A stretch of DNA of 64,000 bases from Fusobacterium varium. GTDB lineage: Bacteria; Fusobacteriota; Fusobacteriia; Fusobacteriales; Fusobacteriaceae. This document shows, piece by piece, positions 50,748-53,503 of the stretch. The stretch spans positions 3,162,001 to 3,226,000 of the forward strand of contig AP017968.1 in the NCBI GenBank assembly GCA_002356455.1, given 5' to 3'. The notes beneath the pieces were generated by a model that searched no databases, had not been told where the DNA came from, and saw only the letters and a list, made by a program, of their open reading frames with translations. Positions within the stretch are counted from its first letter, which is position 1. Each line of letters starts with the position of its first letter. A program made the position numbers and the translations under genes.

Positions 50748-50917
50748 TCAAATTTACTATCAATATATTTTACCTTAATTTATACATTTTTGCAAGTTTT
50801 CTTCATGATGTTTAAACACAGATAAAATATTTTTTTATTGCTTTTTTTCGGAATTTATTGTATATAATATCTATATGTTATCTATTATTTTAACTTTTTC
50901 TTGGGAGGAATATATTA

Positions 50918-51373
50918 ATGATGAAAAAATCTATTGTAATTCTTGCAGGAGTTTTGTTGATTCAACAAATATCTCTTTCTAAAGTTATTAACAAAGATAT
51001 AACTTTTACTGAAAAAACTTATGGAGTATGTTCTACTGAAATGACTGTTTCTGTTAAAGATGGTAAAATTGAATCATTTTTTGCTGTAAAAGGATGTCCT
51101 GGAAACCTTGCTGCAATTGGGAAACTGCTGCCTGGTATGGAAGTAACTAAAGTAATTGAACTTTTAGATGATAATTATTGCTCTGGAGCTCCTTTAGCAG
51201 GATATACTTCATGCATGGATAACTTAGTTGAAATGCTAAAACAACATGTTACTGGAGAAGGAGAGGGCCCTTTAATTGAAGTCAGAAAAGCTCAAAAAGC
51301 AGCTGCTAATAAAGTAGCTTTTGCTGGTCATGTTTGTTCTGGTTGTGGTCTTTGTCAAGCTTCTTTATCTTAA
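50918..51373 (+). CDS. Exported TSCPD-domain Cys-rich protein
   Basis: A 151-residue protein with an N-terminal signal peptide (MKKSIVILAGVLLIQQISLS, ~1-22). Residues ~33-110 resemble the TSCPD domain (TYGVCSTEMTVSVKDGKIESFFAVKGCPGNLAAIGKLLPGMEVTKVIELL...YCSGAPLAGYTSCMDNLVEML), usually cytoplasmic and seen in ribonucleotide reductases, so an exported copy is unusual. It ends with CSGCGLCQASLS, a CxxCxxC cluster, possibly binding metal or a [Fe-S] group. GGGAGG RBS precedes the doubled ATG. It lies 29 bases upstream of an exported FMN-binding protein and is probably one operon with it. Confidence 0.8.
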   Translation: MMKKSIVILAGVLLIQQISLSKVINKDITFTEKTYGVCSTEMTVSVKDGKIESFFAVKGCPGNLAAIGKLLPGMEVTKVIELLDDNYCSGAPLAGYTSCMDNLVEMLKQHVTGEGEGPLIEVRKAQKAAANKVAFAGHVCSGCGLCQASLS

Positions 51374-51402
51374 AAATTACTTAAATTTATAGGAGGAACA
51401 AA

Positions 51403-51705
51403 ATGAAAAAATTACTTATTTCTGCTTTAATAGTTGTATCTTCAGTTGCTGTTTTTGCAGCATCAGAAGGAATAGGATTTGGATATAAAGATGAAATTAA
51501 AGTTTCTGTGGAAAAAGATGGAGATAAAATTGTTGCCATCAAAGTTTTAGAAATGAAAGACACTAAAAGAATAGCTGAACCAGCTATTGAAAAACTAACT
51601 TCTGAAATTATAGCTAAACAATCTGTTGAAGTTGATGATGTAGCAGGTGCTACTTATACTTCTCAAGGATTCAAAGAAGCTGTAGCAGATGCTTTAAAAA
51701 AATAA
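51403..51705 (+). CDS. Exported FMN-binding-domain protein
   Basis: A 100-residue protein with a signal peptide (KKLLISALIVVSSVAVFA, cleavage ~19) and an FMN_bind domain. Near the end DDVAGATYTSQGF (78-90) matches the flavinylation motif Dxx(s/t)GA(T/S)xT, with Thr84 the likely site for covalent FMN. ApbE would attach the flavin outside the cytoplasm. Such small proteins carry electrons in extracytoplasmic chains. AGGAGG RBS lies just before the ATG. Its pairing with a TSCPD protein, 29 bases upstream, suggests a joint redox task. Confidence 0.85.
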   Translation: MKKLLISALIVVSSVAVFAASEGIGFGYKDEIKVSVEKDGDKIVAIKVLEMKDTKRIAEPAIEKLTSEIIAKQSVEVDDVAGATYTSQGFKEAVADALKK

Positions 51706-51755
51706 TAATCTTTAAAAAAAGGGGCTGTTGCAAATTTAAAACAGCCCAATTATCA

Positions 51756-51793
51756 AAAAAGCTGACTTGAAGTTTTCTTCCTGTCAGCTTTTT
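51756..51793 (+). terminator. Intrinsic terminator inside the left IS end
   Basis: AAAAAGCTGAC / GTCAGCTTTTT stem; shields the transposase gene from transcription from the FMN-binding gene. Confidence 0.75.
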
Positions 51794-51857
51794 CTTTTTA
51801 AATAAAAAAAGGTATAAAATACTAAAAATTTTTTCAAATTTCTAATATAATATACCT

Positions 51858-53336
51858 ATGCAAAAACCAACTAATAATAACATTTTTTTTCAATTAAATC
51901 AACCTAAACTTTTTAACTTTTTACAATATGAAATTTCTGATAATGATCCTGTAAGAAAACTTAGCTCAATATTGGAGGGATTAGATTTTAGTAGTTTAAT
52001 GCAAGTATTTTCTTACAAAACAAAGGTACATCCTATCAGAATGTTTTCTATCATTGTTTATGCCTATTCGCGCAATTTAACTTCTACTAGAGATATAGAA
52101 ATGGCTTGCCATGAAAATATTAAATTCAGGTTTCTTTTACAAGATTCTAAAATTCCTGATCACTCTACTATTTCTAGATTCTTAGTAAAAACTGAAGATA
52201 TTCTTCCAGATCTATTTGAACAATTCGTTGAAAAAATTTTTGAAATGGAAAATATTTCCACTGAAACAATATATATTGATGGCACTAAAATTGAAGCATA
52301 TGCTAATAAATATACATTTGTTTGGAAAAAATCTATTGAGAAATATAGAACTAGATTAGATGAAAAAATTCTTGAATTAATTTCAAATTTTAATGATGAT
52401 TTCAACTTACAATATGACAACTTCCTTGAAATATATTCATATCTTTCTAATTTGAATTTTCAAATAGTCAAAGGTAGAGGAAAGAGAAAATCTAAAGAGC
52501 AAAAGTATTTAGAATTATGCGCAGAATACTTAGAAAAGTATCAAAAATATTCTAATCATTTTAAAAATCTTAATGGTAGAAATAGCTATTCAAAAACTGA
52601 TATAGATGCTACTTTTATGAGAATGAAAGATGACCATATGAGAAATGGTCAATTAAAACCTGGATATAATCTGCAAATAGGAGTGATTAGTGAATATATT
52701 TCTTCATATGAAATTTTTTCTAACCCTTCTGATTCTAAAACTTTGATTCCATTTTTAGAGAAAATTTCATCTCAAAATTTAAAAATTAAAAATATTGTAG
52801 CTGATGCAGGATATGAAAGTATTTCAAATTATGAATATTTGGAAAAAATGGACTATACTTCATATATAAAACCAATATATTTTGAAAAATCTAAAATCAG
52901 AAAGTTTAAAAATGATTTAAACAGAGTAGAAAATTTAATATATAATCATTCTGAAAATAAGCTATTTAGAAAAGATGGATTAGAATTAGAATTTCTATAC
53001 TCTAACAAAAATAATACAGTTCAATATTTTTGGAATCCTGAAACTAACAAAAAAATTAAGTACAATGCGAGATTTAGAATTTTATCAAATAAATCAAAAG
53101 AGAATGTATCAAGCAATTATGGAAAACAATTAAGAATGAACAGAAGTATTCAAGTAGAAGGTGCTTTTGCAGTTTTGAAAGAAGATATGAAATTGCGAAA
53201 ATTAAAAGTTCGAAGTAAAAAAAGTGTTTTAAGAGAAATATGTTTGTTTTGTATCGCTTACAACTTCAACAGATATCTAAGCAGAAATATAAATAATCGC
53301 TTAGGAACAACACTTCACTCATTAAAAGTAGCTTAG
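51858..53336 (+). CDS. IS1182-family transposase
   Basis: A 492-residue DDE transposase of full length, with the IS1182 N-terminus (FFQLNQPKLFNFLQ...ISDNDPVRKLSSIL), the catalytic core segments YIDGTKIEAYANKYTFVW (first Asp), NLQIGVISEYISSYEIFSNPSDSKTLIPF, NIVADAGYES (second Asp) and the C-terminal region with RSIQVEGAFAVLKEDMKLRKLKVRS containing the Glu. No stop or frameshift, so it looks functional. It sits within matched inverted repeats. Confidence 0.93.
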   Translation: MQKPTNNNIFFQLNQPKLFNFLQYEISDNDPVRKLSSILEGLDFSSLMQVFSYKTKVHPIRMFSIIVYAYSRNLTSTRDIEMACHENIKFRFLLQDSKIPDHSTISRFLVKTEDILPDLFEQFVEKIFEMENISTETIYIDGTKIEAYANKYTFVWKKSIEKYRTRLDEKILELISNFNDDFNLQYDNFLEIYSYLSNLNFQIVKGRGKRKSKEQKYLELCAEYLEKYQKYSNHFKNLNGRNSYSKTDIDATFMRMKDDHMRNGQLKPGYNLQIGVISEYISSYEIFSNPSDSKTLIPFLEKISSQNLKIKNIVADAGYESISNYEYLEKMDYTSYIKPIYFEKSKIRKFKNDLNRVENLIYNHSENKLFRKDGLELEFLYSNKNNTVQYFWNPETNKKIKYNARFRILSNKSKENVSSNYGKQLRMNRSIQVEGAFAVLKEDMKLRKLKVRSKKSVLREICLFCIAYNFNRYLSRNINNRLGTTLHSLKVA

Positions 53337-53401
53337 ATAAATAAAAAATCATCTACTTCTTTTTTTGATACTTAAAAATAAATATAAAAATATAAATTAG
53401 C

Positions 53402-53432
53402 AGAAATCTATTTTATAGATTTCTATTTTTTT
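53402..53432 (+). terminator. Intrinsic terminator after transposase
   Basis: AGAAATCTA / TAGATTTCT stem then ATTTTTTT, downstream of the transposase stop. Confidence 0.8.
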
Positions 53433-53503
53433 ATGAAAAATAAGAGAGGCTGCACAAATTAGTTTATCAATCACTAATTTGCAACAGCCCCTTTTTTATT
53501 ATT

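What the first reader, a model, noticed from the sequence alone, without database searches (positions are those of the whole stretch)
50918..51705. Exported TSCPD plus exported FMN-binding protein pair
TSCPD domains are normally cytoplasmic and part of ribonucleotide reductase. Here one carries a signal peptide and a C-terminal CxxCxxC cluster, and is followed 29 bases later by an exported protein with a flavinylation motif (DDVAGATYTS). Together they look like a two-part extracytoplasmic redox module, possibly linked to metal or thiol chemistry.
Basis: partly seen in the sequence, partly recalled or inferred. Interest (0 to 1): 0.5.

Follow-up and report, generated by a model that had tools for sequence, protein, structure and literature searches.

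The report
Exported cysteine protein with flavin partner
A Fusobacterium-type bacterium exports a small seven-cysteine protein, whose core resembles iron-sulfur scaffold proteins, from a two-gene unit with a small exported flavin protein; together they probably form an undescribed electron-transfer pair outside the cytoplasm, but what they act on is unknown.

Summary
Window 50918-51373 encodes a 151-aa Sec-type exported protein with a TSCPD domain (Pfam 58 bits, cut-off 22.8) and a C-terminal CxxCxxC. A 29-bp gap separates it from a 100-aa exported FMN_bind protein with an ApbE-type site. The long TSCPD form occurs in 18 of 98 Fusobacteriota genomes; all 17 aligned copies keep seven cysteines. 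The FMN_bind gene lies directly downstream in 10 of 10 non-Cetobacterium genomes, in unrelated surroundings, but in 0 of 8 Cetobacterium genomes; one Fusobacterium kept the FMN gene and lost the TSCPD gene. So the pair is real but not obligate. Predicted structure and a profile alignment place TSCPD in the IscU/SufU-type fold, with three cysteines on IscU's cluster-ligand cysteines; an IscU-like domain with a cysteine tail is already reported at the C-terminus of class II ribonucleotide reductases. The genome has a lipoprotein ApbE, Rnf, exported FMN_bind reductases and a CcdA-thioredoxin, and no DsbA hit. Best reading: the flavinylated carrier delivers electrons to a cysteine or metal centre in the exported IscU-fold protein. 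Cofactor, partner and substrate are untested. New variant of a known kind; interest 0.5.

The parts
50863..50868 (+). TATAAT-like box inside an upstream block that recurs in close relatives; probable promoter
   Evidence: Read: TTGCTTTTTTT..GAATTTATTGTATATAAT recurs in L017-L019 and in G026, which lacks the TSCPD gene. The consensus scan did not list it, so this is inference.
50918..51373 (+). Exported TSCPD-domain protein, 151 aa
50918..50980 (+). Sec-type signal peptide (about residues 1-21), no lipobox, no twin arginine
   Evidence: Hydropathy and A/S-x-A/S sites in 17 of 17 long forms; no signal-peptide predictor was available
51011..51247 (+). TSCPD domain, IscU/SufU-type fold by prediction; Cys38, Cys60, Cys88, Cys99 invariant
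51329..51355 (+). C-terminal HVCSGCGLC cluster (His138, Cys140, Cys143, Cys146 invariant)
   Evidence: modelled with low confidence
51391..51396 (+). AGGAGG ribosome-binding site of the second gene
51403..51705 (+). Exported FMN_bind protein, 100 aa
51634..51663 (+). ApbE-type flavinylation site DDVAGATYTS; candidate acceptor Thr84 (51652-51654)
   Evidence: AGAT invariant in 10 of 10 paired proteins; flavinylation itself not tested

Best explanation
The two genes form a small operon for an extracytoplasmic electron-transfer pair. SHOWN: both products carry signal-like N-termini, are conserved and under purifying selection, and are neighbours in three genera amid unrelated genes. SUPPORTED BY PREDICTION: the TSCPD protein has an IscU/SufU-type core whose Cys38, Cys60 and Cys99 sit where IscU has its cluster-ligand cysteines, plus Cys88 and a flexible tail with HxCxGCGxC. 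INFERRED: the cell's ApbE attaches FMN to Thr84 of the small FMN_bind protein; this carrier takes electrons from a membrane donor (Rnf is the candidate present) and hands them to the cysteine or metal centre of the TSCPD protein. The tail would act as a swinging thiol or metal shuttle towards a client not yet known, much as the cysteine tail after the IscU-like domain re-reduces class II ribonucleotide reductase. The FMN protein is probably a general carrier and the TSCPD protein one of its clients.
For: Domain calls above cut-off. Adjacency in 10 of 10 non-Cetobacterium genomes with the long form, gaps 13-32 bp, with different flanks in the four genomes of three genera inspected at length. 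Seven cysteines invariant in 17 of 17. Models with pLDDT 63 and 76. In one search, 24 of the 50 listed structures are titled IscU/SufU/NifU or an ISC complex and 13 are lipoate ligases or transferases. Global profile alignment puts three cysteines on those of IscU; score 17.9 against at most 15.7 in 60 column shuffles. ApbE, Rnf and FMN_bind reductases in the genome. No DsbA hit, with 8 of 14 controls positive, and a CcdA-thioredoxin fusion, which makes reduced exported cysteines plausible. Of 18 genomes with the long TSCPD, 17 also have a small FMN_bind relative at E 1e-30 or better, against 7 of 43 other Fusobacteriaceae genomes. Published parallel: IscU-like domain plus zinc finger in class II RNR (PMC9669993, passages) and electron transfer by the cysteine tail (PMC5704485, passages).
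Against: Adjacency fails in 8 of 8 Cetobacterium genomes and G026 lives without the TSCPD gene, so the two are not obligate partners. The co-occurrence figure is not corrected for phylogeny, and its threshold was chosen after seeing the data; within Cetobacterium it is uninformative (8, 10 and 7 of 12). No fold match reaches Z 8, and MerA domains score similarly. The first profile comparison found nothing. IscU's aspartate ligand is not conserved. The published flavinylation motif is [S/T]GA[S/T]; here the first residue is Ala. Nothing shows contact between the proteins, a metal, or covalent FMN.
Confidence: 0.48

Rival explanations
1. Metal holder without flavin coupling: the exported TSCPD protein binds zinc or an Fe-S cluster through its core cysteines and tail and stores, senses or delivers metal; its operon mate is incidental.
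For: IscU-type fold and cysteine positions; the tail HxCxGCGxC looks like a metal site; a second, short TSCPD in the same genome is the last gene behind a FecCD-type ABC transporter.
Against: Repeated adjacency to FMN_bind across three genera. The FecCD link concerns a different paralogue without a signal peptide. No conserved metal-transport neighbour of the long form.
Confidence: 0.25
2. Two independent proteins sharing a promoter: the FMN_bind protein is a general shuttle for the cell's exported FAD reductases, and the TSCPD protein does something unrelated.
For: Separated in 8 of 8 Cetobacterium genomes and TSCPD absent from G026. The small FMN_bind protein resembles the N-terminal FMN_bind domain of the exported reductases.
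Against: The same gene order and short gaps persist in three genera while every other neighbour inspected differs; 17 of 18 genomes with the long TSCPD have a small FMN_bind relative.
Confidence: 0.22
3. Extracytoplasmic Fe-S scaffold: the protein works as IscU does, assembling or carrying a cluster outside the cytoplasm, with electrons supplied by the flavinylated protein.
For: Fold and three cysteine positions; the flavin could supply the electrons that assembly needs (inference).
Against: The conserved Asp of IscU is not matched and LPPVK-HC is absent. No cysteine desulfurase was seen among the flanking genes inspected (by eye). Sec export normally means that a cluster is not inserted before export (established knowledge).
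Confidence: 0.05

Closest known systems
TSCPD / TIGR03905 short proteins (about 80 aa, four Cys)
   Same: The four TSCPD cysteines and the domain
   Different: Short forms lack the signal peptide and the CxxCxxC tail; the long form scores below the TIGR03905 cut-off in all three members scanned
C-terminal region of class II ribonucleotide reductase (NrdJ): IscU-like domain plus zinc finger
   Same: IscU-like domain followed by a cysteine cluster at the very C-terminus; the tail carries electrons in NrdJ (PMC9669993 and PMC5704485, passages)
   Different: Here exported, without the reductase barrel, with CxxCxxC in place of the six-cysteine zinc finger
IscU / SufU / NifU_N scaffold proteins
   Same: Predicted fold; three cysteine positions
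   Different: No Asp ligand, no LPPVK-HC motif, exported, extra Cys88 and tail
ApbE-flavinylated FMN_bind carriers (RnfG/NqrC domain, multi-FMN proteins)
   Same: FMN_bind domain with GAT site; sequence match to the solved CbFMN4 and SaFMN3 domains
   Different: Single small soluble exported domain, paired with TSCPD; TSCPD is not mentioned in the main text of the flavinylation survey PMC8238504

Membership tests
Pfam TSCPD PF12637 | Score above gathering cut-off | tested here: met
   58 against 22.8 bits
NCBIfam TIGR03905 | Score above curated cut-off | tested here: not met
   64.2 against 67.7 bits; two other long forms 63.9 and 67.1
Pfam FMN_bind PF04205 | Score above gathering cut-off | tested here: met
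   60.6 against 22 bits
ApbE substrate | [S/T]GA[S/T] acceptor motif | tested here: inconclusive
   AGAT in 10 of 10 paired proteins: acceptor Thr present, first residue Ala. PMC11334425 writes '[S/T]GA[S/T]-like'. FMN_bind domains of exported reductases of the same genome also show AGAT
ApbE substrate | ApbE in the genome, exported side | tested here: met
   One ApbE, E 1.6e-69, start resembling a lipoprotein signal
ApbE substrate | Covalent FMN on the Thr | not testable with these tools
   Needs protein
IscU/SufU/NifU_N scaffold | Fold | tested here: inconclusive
   Best IscU and SufU rows Z 5.7 (86 aligned at 3.0 A; 82 aligned at 3.2 A); no row at Z 8
IscU/SufU/NifU_N scaffold | Three ligand cysteines | tested here: met
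   C38, C60, C99 aligned to IscU C36, C61, C105 of L070
IscU/SufU/NifU_N scaffold | Asp ligand (CGD) and LPPVK-HC motif (motif names recalled) | tested here: not met
   C-S-T faces C-G-D; no LPPVK
Class II RNR C-terminal domain | Attached to the RNR barrel | tested here: not met
   151-aa exported protein; the genome's RNR-like TSCPD protein is a separate gene

The most novel reading that the evidence does not exclude
A flavinylated carrier feeds electrons to an exported IscU-fold protein that holds a metal or Fe-S centre: a new type of extracytoplasmic redox protein, with the IscU fold recruited outside the cytoplasm and a CxxCxxC arm.
Probability: 0.18. Interest if true: 0.75.

Novelty: new variant of a known kind. 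Interest (0 to 1): 0.5.

Why it matters
A role for the IscU-like domain is stated as not reported even in ribonucleotide reductase (PMC9669993). A small, separate, exported version with an apparent electron-donor partner would be an easy protein on which to learn what the domain binds and does. It would also add a protein type to flavin-based electron transfer outside the cytoplasm.

Tried and rejected
Rejected: chance TSCPD call; a role as a ribonucleotide reductase part (exported, no barrel); one universal pair. Tried without result: single-sequence and profile search of solved structures with the TSCPD protein (best E 0.93 and 0.33, unrelated); hhalign of the narrow alignments (0.2% probability; effective sequence number 1.7); relatives in viral contigs with the long form (none); long forms outside Fusobacteriota in plasmids (only two Cetobacterium plasmids cover the query) and phages (11 records, none over 80% of the query). 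Foldseek alone gave no E below 0.001 for either model. Literature: 'TSCPD' gave 2 papers, neither titled or abstracted on the domain; 'TIGR03905' 0; Fusobacteri + FMN-binding + ApbE gave 1 paper on another subject; IscU-like + periplasm + iron-sulfur gave 1, on Sulfurospirillum; Fusobacterium + proteome + FMN-binding + periplasm gave 1 on another subject. I found no description of the pair in these searches; most subscription papers are not held. A decay reading of the G019 copy (no ATG; ATA at that place) was weakened by its low dN/dS of 0.035 against G024. The consensus scan gave no promoter-like site clearly above chance.

The reach outside Fusobacteriota is limited: the one genome-contig scan used a single-sequence query and returned one Fusobacterium MAG.

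Full report
WHAT IS THERE. Two genes lie head to tail on the + strand: 50918-51373 (151 aa) and 51403-51705 (100 aa), 29 bp apart, each preceded by a purine-rich ribosome-binding site. The first is a TSCPD-domain protein (Pfam PF12637, E 1.2e-15, residues 32-110), the second an FMN_bind protein (PF04205, E 2.4e-16). The first misses the TIGR03905 cut-off by a few bits, so it is a TSCPD protein but not a member of that short-protein family as curated. An insertion sequence (51715-53497, perfect 22-bp inverted ends, DDE transposase) sits 9 bp behind the second gene, so what follows the pair here says nothing about the operon.

WHOSE GENOME. The window lies in a 4.12-Mb genome. Genus g1, the window's own, includes G025, whose contig C11 (11,760 bp) has the length of a record deposited as a Fusobacterium sp. 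MAG. Genus g3 is Cetobacterium: contig G010:C2 (704,842 bp) and the place of the gene match a C. somerae plasmid.

EXPORT. No signal-peptide predictor was available. Hydropathy separates the long TSCPD forms cleanly from the short ones: 17 of 17 long forms and 10 of 10 paired FMN_bind proteins pass, 0 of 31 short forms do; 16 of 17 and 10 of 10 also have K/R and no acidic residue at the start (19 of 31 short forms do too). There is no lipobox cysteine or twin arginine in the window protein.

CONSERVATION. The long form is present in 18 of 98 Fusobacteriota genomes searched: 7 of 12 in the own genus, 2 of 2 in g2, 8 of 12 in Cetobacterium, 1 of 1 in g13. In 17 aligned copies all seven cysteines (38, 60, 88, 99, 140, 143, 146) and His110 and His138 never vary. 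The FMN_bind gene follows directly in 10 of 18: all 7 of g1, 2 of g2 and the one of g13, with gaps of 13-32 bp; it is absent next door in 8 of 8 Cetobacterium. In the four genomes whose surroundings I read at greater length (G027, G002, G053, G003) everything else around the pair differs between genera. dN/dS is far below 1 for both genes.

LIMITS OF THE PAIR. Cetobacterium has a small FMN_bind relative elsewhere in 10 of 12 genomes and the long TSCPD in 8 of 12; both occur in 7. On a tree of small FMN_bind proteins the G002 paired copy groups with the Cetobacterium stand-alone copies (96/83), so these are one family; most deeper forks are not resolved. G026 has obg-side DNA and the upstream block like the window's, then DNA unlike it, then the FMN_bind gene; the TSCPD gene is gone. 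In Fusobacteriaceae 17 of 18 genomes with the long TSCPD have a small FMN_bind relative at E 1e-30 or better, against 7 of 43 without it (Fisher 1e-8). This is not corrected for shared ancestry and the threshold was set after seeing the list. The pattern suits a carrier (FMN_bind) with a client (TSCPD) that can be lost.

FOLD. A model from the 17 long forms has pLDDT 63; one of the mature protein from 48 sequences has pLDDT 76, pTM 0.70, order b-b-b-a-a-a-a, with the tail poorly modelled. Of 994 chains aligned to the second model, 116 reach Z 2, 36 reach Z 5 and none reaches Z 8. Of the 50 structures listed, 24 are titled IscU, SufU, NifU or an ISC complex (best Z 5.7), 13 are lipoate ligases or transferases (best 6.5), 12 belong to MerA, persulfide reductases, xanthine/aldehyde oxidase or CO dehydrogenase, and RnfG, and one, 1su0, bears no informative title (recalled as a SufU-like protein). 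Such Z values may mean only a common arrangement. The independent support is sequence: a global profile alignment puts Cys38, Cys60 and Cys99 opposite the three ligand cysteines of IscU; its score, 17.9, exceeds all 60 column shuffles (highest 15.7) and the reversed control (7.2). Earlier comparisons with narrower or untrimmed alignments found nothing or only a 16-column match. A 2022 analysis of ribonucleotide reductases (PMC9669993, passages read) had already predicted an IscU-like domain followed by a zinc finger at the C-terminus of class II enzymes and states that no role for the domain has been reported. That this domain is the TSCPD domain is my inference from the TSCPD match near the end of this genome's RNR-like gene (769-aa open frame; sequence).

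WHAT THE DOMAIN DOES ELSEWHERE. In class II RNR the cysteine tail behind this domain binds zinc and relays electrons to the active site (PMC5704485, passages). In two of six viral contigs with a short TSCPD gene, it lies directly behind anaerobic RNR (NRDD) and a radical-SAM gene, in one followed by a thioredoxin-like gene; a third has a ThyX gene a few genes downstream. In this genome another short TSCPD gene is the last gene behind a FecCD permease and an ABC ATPase. These point to thiol or metal chemistry, without naming it.

EXTRACYTOPLASMIC CONTEXT. The genome has one ApbE whose start resembles a lipoprotein signal, an Rnf operon with an FMN_bind RnfG, and seven large FMN_bind proteins (open frames of 567-602 aa), most with signal-like starts by eye. 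It has a CcdA-thioredoxin fusion and no DSBA-family hit (the search rings in 8 of 14 control genomes). A review on F. nucleatum describes CcdA with an exported thioredoxin as a route for reducing exported proteins (PMC12288474, passages).

MECHANISM. The best reading is a flavin-to-cysteine (or flavin-to-metal) relay: ApbE attaches FMN to Thr84; the carrier is reduced at the membrane, with Rnf the candidate donor; it reduces the TSCPD protein; the flexible HxCxGCGxC tail passes electrons on. Every step after export is inference. Main alternatives are a metal holder not coupled to the flavin, and two independent proteins under one promoter.

NOVELTY. TSCPD does not occur in the main text of the large survey of flavinylation (PMC8238504, find), and my searches found no paper on the pair. 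Public annotation of the Cetobacterium copies reads only 'TSCPD domain-containing protein'. I rate it a new variant of a known kind: known domains in a new place and combination.

Noticed in passing
window 51715-53497: Insertion sequence with perfect 22-bp inverted ends and a 492-aa DDE transposase (51858-53336), inserted 9 bp behind the FMN_bind stop codon; G027 has no such transposase gene right behind its FMN_bind gene.
   Followed up: partly
L141:1254-4237 and L143:295-4493: Viral contigs with a short TSCPD gene directly behind anaerobic RNR (NRDD) and a radical-SAM activase-like gene; in L143 the NRDD carries an intein with homing endonuclease and a thioredoxin-like gene follows.
   Followed up: partly
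L003:1489-3183 (own genome C1:2384975-2386669): Short TSCPD variant (CCDGD in place of GCDGN) is the last gene behind a FecCD permease and ABC ATPase, suggesting a link with iron, haem or cobalamin uptake.
   Followed up: partly
L113:1501-2109: ArsC/glutaredoxin-like gene downstream of a short TSCPD gene; a similar gene is seen in L114 by eye.
   Followed up: no
L023:1501-1950 (G019): Long TSCPD gene with ATA in place of the start ATG and a few changes at conserved positions, yet low dN/dS (0.035) and an intact FMN_bind neighbour.
   Followed up: partly
L025, L027, L028, L031 upstream of the long TSCPD gene: AGCTATAT-AGCTATAT type repeats forming a palindrome (AGCTATATAGCT) in the promoter region behind TTGACATATT, operator-like, in these Cetobacterium genomes.
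   Followed up: no
L100 and L105 (genus g6): A small FMN_bind gene lies directly behind a 400-aa gene that by eye resembles a 2-hydroxyacyl-CoA dehydratase component.
   Followed up: no
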